Assembly: GCA_016840945.1 (NCBI GenBank)
Contig: JAEORJ010000080.1
Span: forward strand, 1 to 6,801
Source of the DNA: Candidatus Gerdarchaeota archaeon
Lineage (GTDB): Archaea > Asgardarchaeota > Heimdallarchaeia > JABLTI01
Direction of reading: 5' to 3'
DNA: 6,801 bases
The position numbers were made by a program, and so were the translations under genes. Shown here in pieces: positions 128 through 6,400 of this stretch. The stretch's first letter is position 1. Every line of letters begins with the position of its first letter. The notes beneath the pieces were generated by a model, which was not told the DNA's origin, did no database searches, and was given only the letters and a program-made list of their open reading frames with translations.

Positions 128-1444
128 ATGAGACAAATACAAGTTATTGTTCCTGCAGGAGAAGGAGCTGATATAGTCAAAGGCCTTGATGAAGTAGTAT
201 CTCCTTCTCAAATTAATTTTATTAAAGGCAGTGATTCTAGCATTATATTAATCACTGTTGCACCTGATAGAATAGGATTTATTTTAGATCATTTATCCGA
301 TCTTGGCATAGGTAGAGTAAAAGGGAGAATAACTATTACAAAAATAGAAGCAACAATACCTCGAATTCGACCTCGTAAACAAGATAAATCTCTGAGAAGA
401 ATTTCAATCGAAGAATTGGAACAAAATGTTTCATCACTTACCAAATTTGATTTTAATTTTATCTCTTGGACAATTCTATCTTCGATTTTAGCTGCTATGG
501 GATTAGTTACTTCAGATAATGTTACACTAATTGCTTCAATGATTATTGCGCCATTAATGGGGCCAATTGTCGCGCTTGCTTTTGGAGCGGTTATATCTAA
601 CAGAAATATCTTAAGAGAAGGGATTATAGCCGAAGGATCCGGTATTCTAATCTCAATCTTAATTGGATTCATTATTGGATTGATATACAATTATTCTTCG
701 GATGAACCCAGTGTATTTATCGTTTCTAGAGGAGAACCTAATATCGTTAATTTAATTATAGCTGCAGCTTCCGGTTTAACAGCTGGTATTTGTTTTGTTA
801 GCGGTACATCATTAGCACTTGTAGGGGTAGCTGCAGCAGCAGCCCTACTACCAGTTACTGTTAATATTGGCATTGCTATGGGGATGTTTGAATGGTATAT
901 TGCACTTGGCAGTTTAGTGCTTTTTATAACAAATGTTGCCTGTGTGCTGTTAGGCTGTATGATTATTTTCTGGGTGAGGAAAGTTGAACCACCTCAAGCT
1001 GTAAAACGTGTAAAAGCGAAAAAATCAACAAGGTTACAATTGATTGCTTTTGGATTAATATTAATAGTAGTAGCTTTTCCAATAATCCAAACATCAGTGC
1101 AAATAGTTAGAAAATGGCAATACCAAAGAATAACTAATGAAGTAGCAAATGATATGCTGAAACCTTTAGATGGTGTAATATTTCCACCAGAAGTAGTCGA
1201 TGTTATTATCACTGGAGGAATCTTTGGAGGATTTAATGTTAATATTACTATTAGATTATTATCAACTAAAAATCTGCCAAATAACACCTATGTTGATTTT
1301 AAAAATGCTCTGGAAGCGAGAGCAAATCATGCTATACAATCTCTGATGCTGGAAGTAATTCTGATTCAGAGTTTTGACACATGCTGGCTGACTCTGCAAA
1401 ACCCAATAGAAGTTTTCATGCCAAAAAGTAAACCAATCACTTAA
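128..1444 (+). CDS. DUF389 / TIGR00341-family polytopic membrane protein
   Basis: Membrane protein of a widespread family whose function is unknown. Seen: a soluble N-terminal domain (about residues 1-105), then about seven hydrophobic segments (roughly 110-128, 132-157, 165-188, 205-226, 228-251, 255-283, 302-326), and a mixed alpha/beta C-terminal tail (about 327-438). The second segment contains SMIIAPLMGPI (137-147), which I recognise as the hallmark of DUF389. A small-residue-rich stretch (GVAAAAALLP, 233-242) suggests tightly packed helices. The ATG at 128 is favoured by GGTGA at 116-120, seven bases upstream. The N-terminus (IQVIVPAGEGADIV) matches the family's usual beginning, so the start looks right. 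The gene appears monocistronic and converges on the next gene with 12 bp between stop codons. Family assignment is firm. Substrate and topology cannot be read from the sequence. Confidence 0.88.
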   Translation: MRQIQVIVPAGEGADIVKGLDEVVSPSQINFIKGSDSSIILITVAPDRIGFILDHLSDLGIGRVKGRITITKIEATIPRIRPRKQDKSLRRISIEELEQNVSSLTKFDFNFISWTILSSILAAMGLVTSDNVTLIASMIIAPLMGPIVALAFGAVISNRNILREGIIAEGSGILISILIGFIIGLIYNYSSDEPSVFIVSRGEPNIVNLIIAAASGLTAGICFVSGTSLALVGVAAAAALLPVTVNIGIAMGMFEWYIALGSLVLFITNVACVLLGCMIIFWVRKVEPPQAVKRVKAKKSTRLQLIAFGLILIVVAFPIIQTSVQIVRKWQYQRITNEVANDMLKPLDGVIFPPEVVDVIITGGIFGGFNVNITIRLLSTKNLPNNTYVDFKNALEARANHAIQSLMLEVILIQSFDTCWLTLQNPIEVFMPKSKPIT

Positions 1445-1464
1445 AAGGTTGGAGGATTAACCTT
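1445..1464. terminator. Inverted repeat between convergent genes, possible bidirectional terminator
   Basis: AAGGTT (1445-1450) and AACCTT (1459-1464) form a 6-bp stem with an 8-base loop. The repeat fills the 12-bp gap between the two convergent stop codons and covers the stop codon of the minus-strand gene. No long T tract follows immediately on either strand, so a terminator role is only suggested by position. Confidence 0.35.
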
Positions 1465-2257
1465 GTGTTATTCCTTCAACTGATAAATTATATCTTTTTA
1501 ATAAAGTAGCAATTTCTTCTAATTCAGTGACTGTTTCAACAGTTAACTTCTTTTTGTAAAGATGACTATTAAGATTAGATGATGCGCGATTTATATCATG
1601 TTTACGCCAAACATTCATCTCTGGATCAGCCATTAACAAATACAAGATTTTTTTCTTTTTATCAGCGATTAAAAAGACATCTCTATGCATTATTTCTTTG
1701 CCAATTAATTCCTTAATGACACCTTTTTCTGTAACAGTGAAAACACGAGGTAAGACTCCTTGAAAGAGCATATTCATTTTTCGAAAGACATCACTTAGAT
1801 GAGTAGGATTAATATCCCTATCATAGGTTATATCACGTGAAATAATGTTAAAATAAGGTTCAATTAAGCCATAAGAATCTAATATCAAACGAGTATGTTC
1901 AAGATTATATAGGAGAAAGAGGACACAAAAACGGCCGTAGGTCATAATTCTAAGGTCCTCAGATTTTTCAGCTTTTACTACAAATGAAATAGCTAATGCT
2001 TTAAGCGTTTCACGATCTTTTATTGGGAAAGGACCAAATTGCTGTATAGCAGAACGCCTTTCTTCATCATCATTAATATCATCAATTAAATCTAAAGGAT
2101 TGTCAAGGCCAATAACTGTCATGCCTTTTATTGCTAGAATCATTGCTTCATCATCACCTAGTTCACTATTATTAAAAGATATACTAGGACCTGAATCGCT
2201 AAAAGTTGAAACAATCATACCAGCTAATTTTGGTTCATATTGATCGGAAACGTCCAT
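1457..2257 (-). CDS. Uncharacterised protein, putative longin/roadblock-like domain plus gelsolin-like C-terminal segment
   Basis: I do not recognise a named family with certainty. Seen: no signal peptide or membrane segment; 266 residues. Residues 11-135 show a plausible beta-beta-alpha-beta-beta-beta-alpha order: strand GMIVSTF (13-19), turn, SISFN (25-29), helix 35-50 (DDEAMILAIKGMTVIG), GPFPI (75-79), strand LKALAISFVVK (85-95), strand GRFCVLFLLY (108-117), helix 119-136. This fits the longin/roadblock-like fold used by GTPase regulators. Residues 193-241 (DVFLIADKKKKILYLLM, then VWRKHDINRASSNLN) resemble the core of gelsolin-like domains, a strand pair followed by a long helix. Both are inferences from pattern, not from alignment. 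Start: ATG at 2255-2257 with GGTG at 2265-2268, seven bases upstream. The gene is divergent from the pilin-like gene and ends 12 bp from the DUF389 gene. Being a real coding gene is much surer than its fold. Confidence 0.75.
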   Translation of the reverse strand: MDVSDQYEPKLAGMIVSTFSDSGPSISFNNSELGDDEAMILAIKGMTVIGLDNPLDLIDDINDDEERRSAIQQFGPFPIKDRETLKALAISFVVKAEKSEDLRIMTYGRFCVLFLLYNLEHTRLILDSYGLIEPYFNIISRDITYDRDINPTHLSDVFRKMNMLFQGVLPRVFTVTEKGVIKELIGKEIMHRDVFLIADKKKKILYLLMADPEMNVWRKHDINRASSNLNSHLYKKKLTVETVTELEEIATLLKRYNLSVEGITQG

Positions 2258-2313
2258 ATTTTCACACCAGATATAATTTCACTTTAAAGGAAAGAGAAAA
2301 TCTTTCAATTACA

Positions 2314-2331
2314 GTTACAGTAGAAAGTAAC
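2314..2331. repeat. Inverted repeat GTTAC...GTAAC at the predicted start site of the minus-strand gene
   Basis: GTTAC (2314-2318) and GTAAC (2327-2331) are perfect 5-bp arms separated by eight bases. They sit just downstream of the TATA box proposed for the minus-strand gene. The 9-mer GAAAGTAAC (2323-2331) within it occurs again at 2469-2477, just downstream of the TATA box of the divergent pilin-like gene. This suggests a shared operator. Confidence 0.4.
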
Positions 2332-2336
2332 GCTCT

Positions 2337-2350
2337 CTTTATATTCCTTT
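2337..2350 (-). promoter_or_regulatory. Likely BRE/TATA promoter of the minus-strand longin/gelsolin-like gene
   Basis: Read on the minus strand this is AAAGGAATATAAAG: a purine-rich BRE-like stretch followed by an A/T-rich TATA box. Initiation about 25 bp downstream would fall near 2315, leaving a leader of about 58 nt. A second candidate, CTTTAAAG (read on the minus strand around 2281-2288), would give an almost leaderless transcript. However, the GGTG before the ATG argues for a leadered message. Confidence 0.42.
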
Positions 2351-2456
2351 GCAATGTAGCATAAAATTTTGTCAATAGAAATTAATTAAAAAAAACGAAA
2401 AACTACGTATAGAATGATTTTCTTAACCAAAAAAAGTGCTTGCCACAACAAAAATT

Positions 2457-2464
2457 CTTTATAA
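2457..2464 (+). promoter_or_regulatory. Likely TATA box of the pilin-like gene
   Basis: CTTTATAA, preceded by an A-rich stretch (AAAAATT) that could serve as BRE. It lies about 90 bp upstream of the ATG at 2555. Initiation would fall near 2488, giving a leader of roughly 65 nt. The element sits directly before the imperfect tandem repeat at 2469-2507. Confidence 0.45.
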
Positions 2465-2468
2465 CCAT

Positions 2469-2507
2469 GAAAGTAACTTTGTTAGAAAGCAACTAAATTT
2501 TGTTAGA
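2469..2507 (+). repeat. Imperfect tandem repeat at the pilin-gene promoter, candidate operator
   Basis: Unit 1 is GAAAGTAAC followed directly by TTTGTTA (2469-2484). Unit 2 is GAAAGCAAC, five extra bases, then TTTGTTA (2485-2505). The 9-mer TTTGTTAGA recurs exactly 21 bp apart (2478-2486 and 2499-2507), two helical turns. Unit 1 also contains TAACtttGTTA (2474-2484), a palindrome. The repeat covers the predicted transcription start, so a repressor bound here could block initiation. Function is inferred from position only. Confidence 0.45.
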
Positions 2508-2554
2508 TTATTGCTAAAAAAAATAACATTCAGAAACGGATGGTTGATTAATAT

Positions 2555-3004
2555 ATGACACTTGGAAAAATGATCCTGAAAAGAAATAGAGCAGTATCAC
2601 CAGTTATTGCAACAGTTTTATTGATTGCATTAACAGTCACTGCAGCGGCAGTTATTTATGTTGTTGTGAGTCGATTGATGCAACCAAAACCTGAATTCGT
2701 TGTAATAAATGCTGGCCGAGTTACAGGTTATCCTGACCGTTATCAAATCAAAATTGCTAATGAAGGCTCAGGCACAGGTAGCATCGATGCTTTAACTTAT
2801 ATTAAATTATCTCATTTAACTGATACAGATATTAGCCCAGTCGCAATGTATGTAGGAACAACCCCATATCAAAATTATACATTGGCGGTAGGTGGCGAAG
2901 TTACACTGATTCTTGATTTTGATACTGATTTTGTTAGTGGAGATCTGTACATTATAACTTTCAGCTATAATAGTAAAACACTTGAATATCAATTCAACTA
3001 TTAG
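2555..3004 (+). CDS. Archaeal type IV pilin-like protein
   Basis: Probable subunit of an archaeal type IV pilus or pilus-like surface filament. Seen: a short basic leader (residues 1-12, with K5, K9, R10, R12), then AVSPVIATVLLIALTVTAAA and a continuous hydrophobic helix to about residue 38. This is the class III signal-peptide pattern cut by PibD-type prepilin peptidase, probably between A13 and V14. The remainder (about 45-149) is a beta-rich domain (VVINAGRV, YQIKIANEGSG, VTLILDFD, LYIITFSYN), as usual for the extracellular head. One N-glycosylation sequon, N-Y-T, lies at 107-109. Length (149) is typical. The start at 2555 is preceded by GGTTGAT at 2542-2548, a weak ribosome site; Met6 (2570) is an alternative that would keep the leader. 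No pilus ATPase, platform protein or peptidase gene lies nearby, so it seems a lone subunit gene. The family is clear; what it assembles into is not. Confidence 0.85.
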   Translation: MTLGKMILKRNRAVSPVIATVLLIALTVTAAAVIYVVVSRLMQPKPEFVVINAGRVTGYPDRYQIKIANEGSGTGSIDALTYIKLSHLTDTDISPVAMYVGTTPYQNYTLAVGGEVTLILDFDTDFVSGDLYIITFSYNSKTLEYQFNY

Positions 3005-3005
3005 G

Positions 3006-3044
3006 GAATGAACAAAATCATTCTCCTCTTTTATTTTCTTTTTA
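3006..3044 (+). terminator. Hairpin and T-rich tract after the pilin-like gene
   Basis: GAATGA (3006-3011) and TCATTC (3018-3023) form a 6-bp stem with a 6-base loop, beginning two bases after the TAG stop. A strongly T-rich stretch follows (3024-3044, with runs of four, four and five T). In archaea the T tract alone can end transcription; the stem is an addition. Confidence 0.6.
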
Positions 3045-3177
3045 TCAATTGATGTTAACTATAGAATAGCGATATAATCAATTATTTTGTTATTTAAATA
3101 ATCAAAATATTTGTTTACCTTTATAAGCAAGTTCAAGCTATATTTACACAAGTAAAAGATCTAAGTGAAAATTCGTC

Positions 3178-3185
3178 TTTTATAA
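3178..3185 (+). promoter_or_regulatory. Candidate TATA box of the SPFH gene
   Basis: TTTTATAA gives a predicted start near 3208 and a leader of about 54 nt, similar to its neighbours. A second candidate, CTTTATAAG at 3119-3127, would give a leader of about 110 nt. The 257-bp gap 3005-3261 holds only these elements and the upstream gene's terminator; no small gene or RNA was recognised. Confidence 0.35.
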
Positions 3186-3261
3186 TAGTCAAAGGACTTG
3201 AAAAATAAAGACTTTTACAGTTAAAACATCTTAAATAATATAAGGGGATAATAGAAAAAAG

Positions 3262-4482
3262 ATGGCTACACCCACAACCATAGCTATTGCAGTTGCAGGA
3301 ATTCTTGGATTGGGGTTAATATTTCTTATATTCTTAATAAGCAGATATCGAAAATTCAAGACCAATGAATATGTAATTCGATTTAGAAATGGTAAAATTA
3401 AATCCGCCGGAAAAGGTGGCCGATGTTTCTTAATGCCAGTAATTGATGAAGTTGTGGTAATACCTACAACCACTCAACAAACTTTTCTCGAAGCGAGAGA
3501 AAAAGTGCTGTCTAGAGAATTTCAGGATGTTGCTGTAAATGCGTTTGTCTTTTGGAAAGTTGTTAAGCCAGATATTGCCTTCACCGCAGTATCTTGGAAA
3601 GAAAAAGAACCCGATTACATTGAAACAATCATTAAAAATGCTGCAGAAAGCATTATTCGTACCACTTGTGCAAACATGCCTTTAGAATCAATAATTCGTG
3701 AAAGATATGAAATCATTACAGCAGTCTCAAAAGAATTACACGATCTTCTAGCAGACATGGGAATAGTAGTAATCTCTGTTGAAATTAGAGATGTTGAAGT
3801 ATTAAACAAGACTCTAAAGAATAACATGGAAGCTTCTAAACAATTACAGGAAGAAGAAACTGCCCGATTACGTCGAGCACAAATGGAAGAGATTACTAGA
3901 CTAAGAGATCTAGAAGTAAACCGTAAAACGGGTATACAAGAACAAAATGTTCAACAAGAAATACAGACACAAGCAAAGAATCGTGAAATTGAAGTTCAAA
4001 AATTGGAAATGAACAGAGCAACAGTTGAAGCAGAAACACTACGAAAAACAGTTACAATCGAAGCTGACGCTGAATATGAAAAGATGAAACGTTTAGCTGA
4101 TGGTGACAAAGCTCGTTTAATTGCTAAGGCTCAAGGTGAAGCTGCTGCAGTTAAAGAGAAATTAATTGCTGAAGCTGATGGTATCTTGGAACAAGTTAAA
4201 TCATTAGCTCAAGCTGATCCTAAGTTCTTCCAATTGAAAATCATGGAAATGTTGCCTGAGATTTACAAACAACTTAACGTTGATAAAATGTTTGTCATGG
4301 GAGATGGCCAAAAGGCATTCTCCAGTTTAGCAGAGTCAATTATACCATTCCTTACAGTCTTACCTGAACTAACCGGTAAAAGCATTGATTTAACAAAAGC
4401 CTTTTCTGAAGATAAACTTGAGGAAAAGAAGGCTAAAAAGAAAGTAATTCCAATAACAACAACAACAACAACTGCAAAATAA
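3262..4482 (+). CDS. SPFH-domain protein, flotillin/stomatin-like membrane scaffold
   Basis: Likely oligomerises at the cytoplasmic membrane and organises membrane domains, as flotillins and stomatins do. Seen: one N-terminal membrane segment (about 7-27); an SPFH/band-7 domain (about 33-190), with the family's opening pattern (NEYVIRFRNGK, GGRCFLMPVIDEVVVIP) and the later strand ISVEIRDVEV (171-180); a long charged coiled coil (about 190-315) rich in Glu, Gln, Arg and Ala, including AKAQGEAAAVKEKLIAEADG (288-307), typical of flotillin-type proteins; and a C-terminal region (about 316-380). The end is KKAKKK followed by six threonines. Length (406) suits a flotillin-like or long stomatin-like protein. 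The ATG at 3262 is preceded by GGGGAT at 3244-3249, 12 bases upstream. The next gene encodes an NfeD-like protein, the standard partner of SPFH proteins, which strongly supports the call. I cannot separate flotillin from stomatin subfamilies without alignment. Confidence 0.9.
   Translation: MATPTTIAIAVAGILGLGLIFLIFLISRYRKFKTNEYVIRFRNGKIKSAGKGGRCFLMPVIDEVVVIPTTTQQTFLEAREKVLSREFQDVAVNAFVFWKVVKPDIAFTAVSWKEKEPDYIETIIKNAAESIIRTTCANMPLESIIRERYEIITAVSKELHDLLADMGIVVISVEIRDVEVLNKTLKNNMEASKQLQEEETARLRRAQMEEITRLRDLEVNRKTGIQEQNVQQEIQTQAKNREIEVQKLEMNRATVEAETLRKTVTIEADAEYEKMKRLADGDKARLIAKAQGEAAAVKEKLIAEADGILEQVKSLAQADPKFFQLKIMEMLPEIYKQLNVDKMFVMGDGQKAFSSLAESIIPFLTVLPELTGKSIDLTKAFSEDKLEEKKAKKKVIPITTTTTTAK
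4455..4472 (+). repeat. (AAC)6 trinucleotide microsatellite at the end of the SPFH gene
   Basis: Six AAC units lie in the last codons of the gene. They are read as ACA x5 then ACT and give a run of six threonines (399-404) just before the C-terminal Ala-Lys. Because the unit is three bases, slippage would change tail length without breaking the frame. Confidence 0.8.
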
Positions 4483-4501
4483 AACAATTCAAAAAACTAA
4501 T

Positions 4502-4543
4502 GCATGAACAAAACTGTTCATGCCACCTCATATTTTTTTGAGG
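4502..4543 (+). terminator. Double hairpin with T7 run after the SPFH gene
   Basis: First stem: GCATGAACA (4502-4510) pairs perfectly with TGTTCATGC (4515-4523), 9 bp with loop AAAC. Second stem: CCTCA (4526-4530) and TGAGG (4539-4543), with a loop consisting mostly of T; the T7 run (4533-4539) follows the first stem. This is a strong candidate terminator 20 nt after the stop codon. It may be only partial, since the NfeD-like gene downstream is a functional partner. Confidence 0.65.
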
Positions 4544-4554
4544 GAAATAAAAAA
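4544..4554 (+). promoter_or_regulatory. Possible TATA-like element for the NfeD-like gene
   Basis: AAATAAAAAAC-type A/T stretch (about 4545-4554) preceded by GAGGG. It would place initiation near 4577 with a leader of about 52 nt, and the inverted repeat at 4556-4577 would lie between the box and the start. The element is degenerate, so read-through from the SPFH gene is an equally good explanation for expression. Confidence 0.25.
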
Positions 4555-4555
4555 C

Positions 4556-4577
4556 TGAATTACTAAAAAGTAATTCA
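4556..4577. repeat. Perfect 9-bp inverted repeat upstream of the NfeD-like gene
   Basis: TGAATTACT (4556-4564) and AGTAATTCA (4569-4577) are perfect complements around a 4-base AAAA centre. This is the third hairpin-capable element in 76 bp. It lacks a following T tract, which makes it less terminator-like and more like an operator or leader structure. The 12-mer AATTACTAAAAA within it recurs at 6478-6489 upstream of galU. Confidence 0.55.
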
Positions 4578-4610
4578 AAATGTCAAAAGCATAAGCTAAA
4601 CAAAACTCCA

Positions 4611-4616
4611 AGGAGG
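4611..4616 (+). promoter_or_regulatory. Perfect Shine-Dalgarno that decides the TTG start of the NfeD-like gene
   Basis: AGGAGG is the strongest ribosome binding site in the window. It lies 12 bases before the TTG at 4629-4631. The next in-frame Met (residue 46) would remove the first membrane segment, and no ATG or GTG in frame lies nearer the site, so TTG is the best start. Confidence 0.7.
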
Positions 4617-4628
4617 AAAAAACAGAAT

Positions 4629-5519
4629 TTGACTTTAATCTCAATTTTTACTGAGTACCTATTGTTAGCTACTGAATTGCTAAAATGGGAAGTTTGGCTC
4701 AAAGGATTCTGTATTGGTTTCTTCGCTTTTGGTATTGTAGTAGTTATATTAGTGCTTGCAACCATGGGAGCAAGTGCTGGTCAACATTTAGCTCATGACT
4801 TTGATCATGATGCTGACTTATCAATGGATCACGATGTATCAATTGACAAGGACATATCTGTCGATCATGATCTTTCAATTGATAAGGATATTTCTATTGA
4901 TCATGACCTATCAATTGATCATGATCTTACAATCGATAAAGATCTTTCAATTGATAAAGACATTAGTATTGATAAAGACATTCCACATGGAACGGACATT
5001 GATGTGGATACTGATATGCATATTGAAGGTCCTTTTGCAATAGAAAAAGGTTCTACTGCACCATTATTATTGTTATTAGCAGTTTTTTCTATAACTTTTG
5101 GTGGATTAGGACTTTTATTATTCTGGCAAGAACCTGATATGAATTCCTTCACTCGATTAGTTGTAATAATTATTACACCAATAGTATTATCAATAATTGT
5201 TGATCGTGTGTGGAGAGCCGTTGCTGTTTCAGAGACCTATCGTTTACCAACTAATAATGAATATCTCGGTAAAGAAGCAGTGGTAATTGTAAAATGTGAT
5301 TCCAAAGGTGGGACTATTAGAGTTGAAATGCCTGATCAAATAGAACCATTGAAATTACCCGCAAAAACCCTACATCCTCACCAAGAATTTTTACAAGATG
5401 AATTAGTGTTTATTGTAGGTATCGAGAGAAATTTCTATCTTGTTGATGATACTAAGGATATGCTAAAAAGTAAAGTTAAACCAATTTCGGAAGATAATGA
5501 TACAGAGGATCAAAGTTAG
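4629..5519 (+). CDS. NfeD-like membrane protein with Asp-rich hexapeptide repeats
   Basis: Probable membrane partner of the SPFH protein encoded just upstream. Seen in order: a hydrophobic or amphipathic N-terminus (2-18); a membrane segment (about 26-47); an acidic, His-rich loop (52-133) containing nine hexapeptides of pattern [LIV]-S/T-[IVM]-D-[HK]-D (64-117) plus two decayed units (118-129); two membrane segments (about 144-166 and 177-193); and a C-terminal domain (about 208-275) with EYLGKEAVVIVKC, GGTIRVEM and ELVFIVGIERNFYLV. The last matches the OB-like fold of NfeD/YuaF proteins (opening G-K-x-A/G strand, closing V-x-V-G-I strand). With three membrane segments, the repeat loop and OB domain would lie on the same side, probably the cytoplasm with the SPFH protein. 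The ClpP-like protease domain of long archaeal NfeD proteins is absent. Start is TTG behind AGGAGG. The stop overlaps galU's stop by four bases. NfeD assignment is good; the role of the repeat is unknown. Confidence 0.85.
   Translation: MTLISIFTEYLLLATELLKWEVWLKGFCIGFFAFGIVVVILVLATMGASAGQHLAHDFDHDADLSMDHDVSIDKDISVDHDLSIDKDISIDHDLSIDHDLTIDKDLSIDKDISIDKDIPHGTDIDVDTDMHIEGPFAIEKGSTAPLLLLLAVFSITFGGLGLLLFWQEPDMNSFTRLVVIIITPIVLSIIVDRVWRAVAVSETYRLPTNNEYLGKEAVVIVKCDSKGGTIRVEMPDQIEPLKLPAKTLHPHQEFLQDELVFIVGIERNFYLVDDTKDMLKSKVKPISEDNDTEDQS
4818..4979 (+). repeat. Nine tandem 18-bp units encoding [LIV]S[IVM]D[HK]D
   Basis: The units are exactly 18 bp with no spacers or indels: LSMDHD, VSIDKD, ISVDHD, LSIDKD, ISIDHD, LSIDHD, LTIDKD, LSIDKD, ISIDKD. 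Position 5 alternates His and Lys in the first five units (H,K,H,K,H) and then reads H,K,K,K. Asp at positions 4 and 6 is invariant. Synonymous differences (TTA/CTT/CTA, GAT/GAC, AAG/AAA) show the units have diverged in DNA while the peptide stayed conserved. That implies selection on the protein, not a recent expansion. Two degenerate units follow (IPHGTD, IDVDTD). Confidence 0.95.
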
Positions 5520-6400
5520 AGGGAAATTTTTTTCAGATGCTCTCGAAGCTCTGGTCCTATTTCTTCATCTTTTAAACAAAAATCAACAAATGCTTTAGCA
5601 TATAGAGCAAAAGAACCTGTGTCATATCTTTTTTCGTCTTGAGCTAATTGTAAAGCAGCTATAGTTCCTGAACCTAAGGAGAGTTTTATAGCATCCGTTA
5701 ATTGTTTTTCTTTTCCTTTACCAAGAGGTGTCTTTTCTATAAAATCAAAAATATCAGGAGTAAAAACATACCTACCACTAATAGCTAAATTACTTGGGGC
5801 TTCTTCAATCGATGGTTTTTCAATCAAATCTTTAACAATGAATTTACCCATTTTATTTTGACCATTATATTGTTCTACATCTAAAATACCATATCTATTA
5901 CATTGTTCTATTGGTATTTCCTCAACTGATAATGTGCATGAAGCATTAACCTCTTGATGGTAATTAATTAACCGTGAAAGATGGATTGGCGATTTGCTAG
6001 AACTAACTATAGTATCACCAAGAGCAACTACAAAATTATCATCATTAACAAATTCCTTTGCCTTATATACAGCATCAGCTAGACCAGTAGGTACTGCTTG
6101 TCTTACATAAAATATTTGAACATTAAGCGATTCCAAAGCATCTAAGTCCCTAACTTGTTCCACTTTATTTTTCTTTTTGAGATCTTCTAACAAAACAGGA
6201 TCTCGATCAAAATGATCTTCAATCGCTCTTTTATTCTTACCAGTGATGATTAAGATATCTTTTATTCCAGCTTGCTCAAGTTCTTCTATAATATATTGGA
6301 TAACTGGTTTTTTAGCTACTGGTAACATTTCTTTTGGTTGCGATTTAGTAGCTGGCAACATTCGAGTACCTAAACCTGCTGCTGGAATAACACCTTTCAT
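5516..6400 (-). CDS. galU: UTP-glucose-1-phosphate uridylyltransferase (GalU-type)
   Basis: Cytoplasmic enzyme that joins glucose 1-phosphate and UTP to give UDP-glucose and pyrophosphate, the donor for glycan and glycolipid synthesis. Seen: the N-terminal nucleotide-binding motif AAGLGTRMLPATKSQPKEML (7-26), including the GalU-type spacing G-L-G-T-R and the PKEM Lys; VIQYIIEEL (33-41); TGKNKRAIEDHFD (53-65), characteristic of GalU as opposed to RmlA; Q-A-V-P-T-G-L-A-D-A (101-110), the sugar-nucleotide loop; ALGDT (126-130) with the metal-binding Asp129; EKP (194-196) with the sugar-phosphate Lys; and Y-D-T-G (259-262) with the second metal Asp260. Length (294) is typical of bacterial and archaeal GalU, and no residues appear missing. 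Start: ATG at 6398-6400 with GGAAGTG five bases upstream. Specificity for dTTP or other sugars cannot be fully excluded. The gene reads in the same direction as the ATP synthase gene upstream but is separated by a terminator. Confidence 0.92.
   Translation of the reverse strand: MKGVIPAAGLGTRMLPATKSQPKEMLPVAKKPVIQYIIEELEQAGIKDILIITGKNKRAIEDHFDRDPVLLEDLKKKNKVEQVRDLDALESLNVQIFYVRQAVPTGLADAVYKAKEFVNDDNFVVALGDTIVSSSKSPIHLSRLINYHQEVNASCTLSVEEIPIEQCNRYGILDVEQYNGQNKMGKFIVKDLIEKPSIEEAPSNLAISGRYVFTPDIFDFIEKTPLGKGKEKQLTDAIKLSLGSGTIAALQLAQDEKRYDTGSFALYAKAFVDFCLKDEEIGPELREHLKKISL
5527..5533 (+). terminator. T7 tract after the NfeD-like gene, inside the end of galU
   Basis: A run of seven T begins eight bases after the TAG stop of the NfeD-like gene. 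It is the complement of the AAAAAAA that encodes the Lys-Lys near galU's C-terminus. Archaeal RNA polymerase can stop at such tracts. No stem precedes it. Confidence 0.35.

What the first reader, a model, noticed from the sequence alone, without database searches (positions are those of the whole stretch)
4818..4979. Acidic His/Lys-alternating hexapeptide array inside an NfeD-like protein
The sequence shows nine perfect-register units of [LIV]S[IVM]D[HK]D, with invariant Asp at two positions and His or Lys between them, placed between the first and second membrane segments. Known NfeD/YuaF proteins have a protease domain or only a short linker before the membrane segments; I do not know of one with this array. 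Alternating hydrophobic positions 1 and 3 plus a strict six-residue period suggest stacked strands (a small beta-solenoid or roll) with rows of Asp and His on one face. Such a face could bind Ca2+ or a transition metal, or let copies on neighbouring SPFH scaffold subunits stack on each other. DNA units differ synonymously, so the peptide is under selection. The fold and binding roles are inferred.
Basis: partly seen in the sequence, partly recalled or inferred. Interest (0 to 1): 0.78.

Follow-up and report, generated by a model that had tools for sequence, protein, structure and literature searches.

The report
Acidic repeat loop in archaeal NfeD
An archaeal membrane protein that partners a raft-organising scaffold carries a long, repetitive, strongly acidic loop; the loop is predicted to be unfolded rather than a metal-binding solenoid, and most relatives examined follow a rule of acidic residues at every second position.

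Summary
The array is real: nine in-register units [LIV][ST][IVM]D[HK]D, residues 64-117 (window 4818-4979), in a 296-aa NfeD/YqiJ-type membrane protein next to an SPFH gene. Unit 7 has Thr, and the fifth position reads H-K-H-K-H-H-K-K-K. Named relatives are Heimdallarchaeota and other Asgard archaea. The solenoid and His-metal readings are not supported: AlphaFold2 gives no secondary structure in the array; some relatives have units of 3, 7 or 9 residues; 16 of 78 related loops have neither His nor Lys. Such loops are not unique: an acidic segment occurs in 78 of 78 ORFs from this phylum and in 111 of 111 full-length YqiJ_N-type proteins examined, but not in E. coli YqiJ. What most keep is parity: 92% and 98% of gaps between successive acids are even, against 45% in control acidic segments. 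About a tenth of the Asgard loops break the rule. Between two acids only 3 of 1690 positions are acidic, although 1126 of the 1687 others are one base from an acid codon. Best reading: a selected, probably cytosolic, disordered polyanionic loop; its function is inferred.

The parts
4629..5519 (+). NfeD/YqiJ-type membrane protein, 296 aa, TTG start (AAGGAGG at 4610-4616)
   Evidence: ORF; sequence; some homologues named NfeD family by their source; NfeD soluble domains match the profile and the model
4689..4790 (+). first hydrophobic segment (TM1), about residues 21-54
   Evidence: hydropathy; helix 2-55 in model
4794..4817 (+). degenerate acidic lead-in HDFDHDAD, residues 56-63
   Evidence: sequence
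4818..4979 (+). array of nine hexapeptide units [LIV][ST][IVM]D[HK]D, residues 64-117
   Evidence: no predicted secondary structure
4980..5030 (+). acidic tail of the loop, IPHGTDIDVDTDMHIEG, residues 118-134
   Evidence: sequence
5058..5225 (+). membrane helices TM2 (144-167) and TM3 (173-199)
   Evidence: model; block pLDDT 90-95 for residues 151-190, 74-78 at the ends
5274..5447 (+). C-terminal OB-fold domain (strands 216-273)
   Evidence: model; Foldseek 3cp0 TMt 0.87, 3wwv, 2k14; profile hit to YuaF 2k14, E 5.7e-5
3262..4482 (+). SPFH/Band 7 protein, 406 aa, the neighbouring presumed partner gene
   Evidence: PF01145 E 8.1e-31; SPFH ORF within 500 nt on the same strand for 67 of 78 unique NfeD-like ORFs

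Best explanation
The array is the TM1-TM2 loop of an SPFH-associated protein of the NfeD/YqiJ kind. SHOWN by sequence: it is a selected tandem-repeat loop whose unit number differs between close relatives, whose unit differs between lineages, and whose most constant property is an acidic residue at alternate positions with aliphatic (sometimes His or Lys) residues between. SHOWN by prediction only: no secondary structure in the array. INFERRED: it lies on the cytosolic side (two predicted helices separate it from the OB domain, and the OB domain of S. aureus NfeD is reported cytosolic). It stays an extended, hydrated, polyanionic chain. Next to the SPFH oligomer it works as a charged bristle or spacer that gathers counter-ions, keeps neighbouring complexes and clients soluble and apart, and sets distance by its number of units. 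The even spacing of charge keeps the aliphatic residues from clustering.
For: Array and selection: (between units pN below pS in 76 of 77 loops, median ratio 0.45). No structure predicted: 34-row alignment, residues 62-141 pLDDT below 50; residues 50-135 alone. Length turnover: unit counts 8, 7, 6, 5 in P0001, P0006, P0009, P0005, whose parts after the array are 90-96% identical. Generality: acidic segment in 78 of 78 ORFs, net charge -0.19 to -0.51 per residue, and in 111 of 111 full-length YqiJ_N-type proteins; profile match of 18 Asgard to 20 YqiJ_N-type rows over most of the length, probability 98.3%. Parity: 92% and 98% even gaps against 45% in 88 control segments; 3 of 1690 sandwiched positions acidic. 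SPFH neighbour: 67 of 78 within 500 nt. Cytosolic OB domain binding FloA in S. aureus: PMC11222466, passages.
Against: Alternation is more order than a plain disordered bristle needs and would equally suit a beta-strand. Low AlphaFold2 confidence in a repeat may reflect a poor alignment; the array alone scored pLDDT 60.5, which is ambiguous. The charge-based topology test was weak (K+R after TM3 exceeds the TM2-TM3 loop in 43 of 78, equal in 7). The Asgard ORFs were gathered with a profile that contains arrays, so array-free relatives may be missed, and 102 of 227 genomes gave no match. In more distant pairs the length differences are not multiples of six (for example 13, 20, 26). E. coli YqiJ has no such array. 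No experiment bears on function.
Confidence: 0.5

Rival explanations
1. Cation-switched beta zipper: the alternating acidic/aliphatic chain is unfolded until Ca2+, Mg2+, polyamines or low pH neutralise the Asp face, then loops of neighbouring NfeD copies pair into a sheet that locks the SPFH microdomain.
For: Alternation of acids kept across different repeat units and in both the Asgard and the YqiJ_N-type sets; the commonest best periods, 4, 6, 8 and 12, are even. That alternating hydrophobic/acidic peptides form sheets when neutralised is recalled from general knowledge; I saw only the listing.
Against: No strands predicted. Parity is broken in some relatives: odd gaps 31 of 35 in L079's second copy, 11 of 24 in L023, 8 of 19 in L025, 5 of 12 in L066, 6 of 16 in L071 and L075, 11 of 36 in L088; the lowest tenth of the 78 loops has a parity share of 0.55, no better than shuffled (0.56).
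Confidence: 0.17
2. Small beta-solenoid or roll with stacked Asp and His rows, for example a left-handed hexapeptide helix.
For: Six-residue period with hydrophobics at positions 1 and 3; weak NCBIfam hits to hexapeptide transferases LpxD and GlmU (E 0.016 and 0.024, far below cut-off).
Against: No strands in either model; no Pfam hexapeptide match listed at E 10, though HMMER's filters drop most weak matches; some relatives use 3-, 7- and 9-residue units; unit numbers 4, 5, 6, 7, 8 and 11 in P0001-P0018, with no step of three.
Confidence: 0.05
3. Metal-binding loop: DHD motifs hold a transition metal, or Asp rows hold Ca2+, as store or sensor.
For: D-H-D spacing; many Asgard loops are His-rich, up to 31 His (L072).
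Against: Closest relatives have Lys in place of His (DHD 0-2 in 18 of 18); 17 of 78 loops have no His and 16 have neither His nor Lys; a cytosolic side, itself inferred, makes Ca2+ storage unlikely.
Confidence: 0.1
4. Electrostatic latch: the acidic loop grips a basic tail of the SPFH partner.
For: The window clade's SPFH tails are Lys-rich, net +3 to +9 over the last 45 residues in 8 of 8.
Against: Over 67 pairs tail charge averages only +1.4, and the correlation runs the wrong way (r = +0.40: the less acidic the loop, the more basic the tail). Rows are not phylogenetically independent, and a few SPFH ORFs are cut or masked.
Confidence: 0.08
5. Neutral slippage: a microsatellite-like tract without function that happens to be tolerated in the loop.
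For: Unit number varies between close relatives and tandem duplication explains it.
Against: Units have diverged synonymously while the peptide is kept (pN below pS in 76 of 77 loops); acids almost never appear between acids though often one base away.
Confidence: 0.1

Closest known systems
YqiJ family (PF21001 YqiJ_N, PF07290 YqiJ_OB), partner of flotillin-like SPFH proteins
   Same: TM1, loop, TM2-TM3, C-terminal OB-fold; SPFH gene beside it; the PF21001-labelled proteins examined (P0034, P0036, P0030, P0038-P0156 without fragments) have acidic alternating loops in their N-terminal part; profile match 98.3%
   Different: The window protein does not match the Pfam models (YqiJ_N E 8.2); hexapeptide with Lys/His; E. 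coli YqiJ's loop is short and not repetitive
NfeD proteins YuaF (PDB 2k14), 3cp0, P. horikoshii 1510-C (3wwv) and E. coli YbbJ (8z5g)
   Same: OB-fold domain, SPFH-associated
   Different: Only domain-level matches were seen; whether their full proteins have any acidic loop was not tested
Left-handed beta-helix hexapeptide repeat proteins (LpxD, GlmU)
   Same: Period of six with aliphatic positions
   Different: No predicted strands, no Pfam match listed, and some relatives use other unit lengths

Membership tests
NfeD/YqiJ, SPFH-associated | C-terminal OB-fold of the NfeD type | tested here: met
   Foldseek to 3cp0 (E 1.6e-4, TMt 0.87), also 2k14 and 3wwv at weaker E; profile hit to 2k14 E 5.7e-5
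NfeD/YqiJ, SPFH-associated | Gene next to an SPFH gene | tested here: met
   Window 3262-4482 PF01145; of 78 unique ORFs, 67 have SPFH within 500 nt on the same strand, 6 further away, 5 none found, 3 of these in loci of 3.2 kb or less
NfeD/YqiJ, SPFH-associated | Membrane helices before the OB-fold | tested here: met
   Predicted helices 2-55, 144-167, 173-199; hydropathy
NfeD/YqiJ, SPFH-associated | Match to a curated family model (PF21001, PF07290, PF01957) | tested here: inconclusive
   No family at E 0.1, YqiJ_N only E 8.2; 4 of 37 members of A1 match YqiJ_N and 1 matches NfeD at E 0.01; profile-profile match to YqiJ_N-type proteins 98.3%, low-complexity columns included
NfeD/YqiJ, SPFH-associated | Physical binding of the SPFH partner | not testable with these tools
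   Known for S. aureus FloA-NfeD (PMC11222466, passages)
Hexapeptide left-handed beta-helix | Rungs of beta strand | tested here: not met
   No strands predicted in the array; prediction only
Hexapeptide left-handed beta-helix | Match to hexapeptide models | tested here: not met
   None listed in Pfam at E 10; NCBIfam E 0.016-0.024, 13.5-14.3 bits against cut-offs of 207 and 367
Metal-binding His/Asp-rich loop | His ligands kept in close relatives | tested here: not met
   Lys instead of His in the closest relatives; no His in 17 of 78 loops
Metal-binding His/Asp-rich loop | Binding of a metal, Ca2+ by Asp included | not testable with these tools
   Asp residues are kept; no binding data

The most novel reading that the evidence does not exclude
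A widespread and, as far as my searches show, undescribed class of SPFH-partner loop in Asgard archaea and bacteria is built on one rule: acidic residues at alternating positions, realised by many different repeat units. It acts as an ion- or pH-switched beta zipper that joins NfeD copies around an SPFH ring and so turns microdomain assembly on or off. Lineages tune it by the number and kind of units.
Probability: 0.13. Interest if true: 0.7.

Novelty: new variant of a known kind. Interest (0 to 1): 0.42.

Why it matters
SPFH/NfeD pairs organise membrane microdomains in bacteria and archaea. I found no description of the variable acidic TM1-TM2 loop of NfeD/YqiJ proteins: none in the titles and abstract starts listed by searches, and none in the passages read of four papers ('acidic' occurs 0 times in PMC2636767, PMC11237479 and PMC11222466). 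Most subscription papers are outside that library. The alternating-acid rule is a simple regularity over 189 proteins (78 + 111) that can be tested with synthetic peptides. If the loop switches with ions or pH, it would give a physical handle on how these microdomains assemble, also in archaea related to eukaryotes.

Tried and rejected
Beta-solenoid: folded two ways, compared with hexapeptide models; rejected as best reading. Metal by His: rejected on His/Lys/none turnover. Basic-tail latch: tested on 67 SPFH neighbours, not supported. Neutral slippage: rejected as the whole story on pN/pS and sandwiched positions. Positive-inside topology: a crude script gave 43 of 78 in favour and 7 equal, inconclusive. 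Looking for array-free close relatives by residues 138-290 alone: 20 proteins, of which 19 (P0001-P0019) were already known and carry arrays; the twentieth, P0037, is a 348-aa protein with other Pfam domains covering about half the query and was not examined further. The linker finder picked a later gap for L045 and gave nothing for the fragment L029; the acidity-based segment finder was used for the counts instead, and it does not itself check that the segment lies between TM1 and TM2. The tree is a quick one with 34 open forks of 91 and long branches; I use it only for 'coarse loop class changes 4 times on 97 rows', without a shuffled control, and the labels are coarse (L031 is labelled K6 although its loop is mixed).

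Caveats on counts. The 78 Asgard ORFs are the unique NfeD-like ORFs found in loci L001-L091 plus the window; the 30 loci tied to matches (L002 came already) and 60 regions (many of them the same places with wider flanks) were taken from its listed matches, not from all matches. In one search, 77 of 78 loops were used (one with masked residues dropped). The YqiJ_N-type set is P0038-P0156 plus P0030, P0034, P0035 and P0036, 123 rows, of which 12 shorter than 200 aa were dropped; one search listed only the best 120 of 223; the four named rows came, a search that the array itself influenced. Most are unnamed; the few with a source name are Chloroflexota or Anaerolineales, and I call the set bacterial on that ground. 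The 88 control segments are the most acidic 30-mers of stop-to-stop ORFs of 150 aa or more in the same loci, so some may be spurious frames; 1 of 88 controls and 70 of 78 NfeD loops had 80% or more even gaps.

Full report
OBSERVATION. The ORF 4629-5519 (+, TTG start behind AAGGAGG) encodes 296 residues. Residues 64-117 are nine hexapeptides in register at exactly the coordinates given; unit 7 has Thr for Ser, and the fifth position reads H K H K H H K K K. In 5000 shuffles the longest run was one unit.

THE PROTEIN. AlphaFold2 on 34 sequences gives a helix at 2-55, two helices at 144-167 and 173-199, and strands of an OB-like barrel at 216-273. Foldseek matches NfeD soluble domains (3cp0 E 1.6e-4, TMt 0.87; weaker 2k14, 3wwv) and the E. 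coli QmcA-YbbJ complex 8z5g; a sequence profile finds YuaF 2k14 at E 5.7e-5. The upstream gene is SPFH. No Pfam model matches the window protein itself at E 0.1. Homologues, where named, are Heimdallarchaeota and other Asgard archaea; the gene order around it is kept in L001, a Heimdallarchaeota contig. No whole genome is held for the window.

THE ARRAY IN RELATIVES. In P0001-P0018 the script counted 4-11 units, mostly DKD. Proteins whose part after the array is 90-96% identical differ by one to three units (P0001 8, P0006 7, P0009 6, P0005 5); in more distant pairs the length differences are not multiples of six. Of 227 genomes of the phylum 125 matched the profile and 102 did not; the profile contains arrays, so array-free relatives may be among the misses. 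In the 78 unique ORFs from the fetched loci plus the window, every one has an acidic segment, 45-132 residues, net charge -0.19 to -0.51 per residue. The unit changes with lineage: hexamers with DKD or DHD, DHDV-like tetramers, DVDIDADV-like octamers without His or Lys, a 3-residue DHI/DHL unit in one copy of L079 (read by eye), 7-residue units in L023 and L025, 9 in L066, 13 in L027 and L089. On a quick tree of 97 rows the coarse class changes 4 times. A search with residues 105-265 of P0034, outside its loop, found 223 proteins and listed 120. Of 123 rows taken (119 new ones plus four), 12 fragments were dropped; all 111 others have a 30-residue stretch at least 37% acidic within the first 180 residues, and 109 reach 40%. 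An 18-row Asgard and a 20-row YqiJ_N-type alignment match over most of their length at 98.3% probability and 24% identity; low-complexity columns contribute to this. E. coli YqiJ, by contrast, has a short loop without repeats, so the array is not a constant part of the family.

A PARITY RULE. In the Asgard loops 91.7% of 2359 gaps between successive acidic residues are even, and adjacent acids make 0.6%; in the YqiJ_N-type set 97.8% of 2759 gaps are even and adjacent acids make 1.0%. In 88 acidic segments of other ORFs from the same loci the even share is 44.9% and adjacent acids make 26.3%; the same measure on the NfeD loops gives 92.8% and 1.1%. Of 1690 positions flanked by two acids 3 are acidic, although 1126 of the 1687 others are one base from an acid codon; in the controls it is 74 of 359. 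This suggests selection, not codon reach, behind the alternation. The window obeys it (0 odd gaps of 26). Exceptions are real: odd gaps 31 of 35 in L079's second copy, 11 of 24 in L023, 8 of 19 in L025, 11 of 36 in L088, 8 of 34 in L089, 5 of 12 in L066, 6 of 16 in L071 and L075; the lowest tenth of the Asgard loops has a parity share of 0.55, as in shuffles (0.56), against a median of 0.87.

MECHANISM. The array has pLDDT below 50 in the full model. Residues 50-135 folded alone have pLDDT 60.5, pTM 0.12 and no secondary structure. Two predicted helices lie between array and OB domain, so both should be on one side; S. aureus NfeD's OB domain is reported cytosolic and bound to the FloA coiled coil (PMC11222466, passages). 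My charge-based topology test was weak. I therefore take a cytosolic disordered polyanionic loop as most likely and a bristle/spacer role as inference. The main rival is a beta zipper switched by cations or pH, which would explain the parity better. His-based metal binding and a solenoid fit badly; a latch with the SPFH tail was tested and not supported.

NOVELTY. The NfeD classes of SPFH operons (PMC2636767, passages) and the YqiJ/YuaF 3TM proteins (PMC11237479, passages) are known. I saw no description of the acidic loop or its parity in the listings of searches or in the passages of the four papers opened (the fourth is PMC12624060). The protein is of a known kind with a variant loop; the rule about the loop is the part worth following.

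Noticed in passing
window 3262-5519; L001-L007, L021: In the window's clade the SPFH gene lies upstream of NfeD; in 64 of the 73 ORFs with an SPFH gene found it lies downstream. Of the 9 'upstream' cases only L089 is outside the clade.
   Followed up: partly
L079 2803-3684 and 4004-4846 (-): Two NfeD-like copies in tandem beside SPFH, one with a DVDIDADV-like loop, the other with a 3-residue DHI/DHL repeat that breaks the alternation rule.
   Followed up: partly
window 4400-4482: The SPFH protein of the window ends in a Lys-rich stretch followed by a Thr run (KKAKKKVIPITTTTTTAK; similar in L001), with a CAA-type tandem repeat in the DNA at 4451-4472.
   Followed up: partly
window 1457-2257 (-): A 266-aa protein without a significant Pfam or NCBIfam match, with a similar protein in the same place in L001.
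   Followed up: no
window 128-6400; L001 4653-11381: Gene order DUF389, unknown, archaeal pilin-like, SPFH, NfeD, galU-like is kept between the window and L001.
   Followed up: no
protein P0043 (YqiJ_N-type): Its acidic loop hits Pfam LED_rpt (PF20854) at E 1.4e-7 but below the cut-off (31.9 of 59 bits); whether that repeat family is the same kind of sequence was not examined.
   Followed up: no
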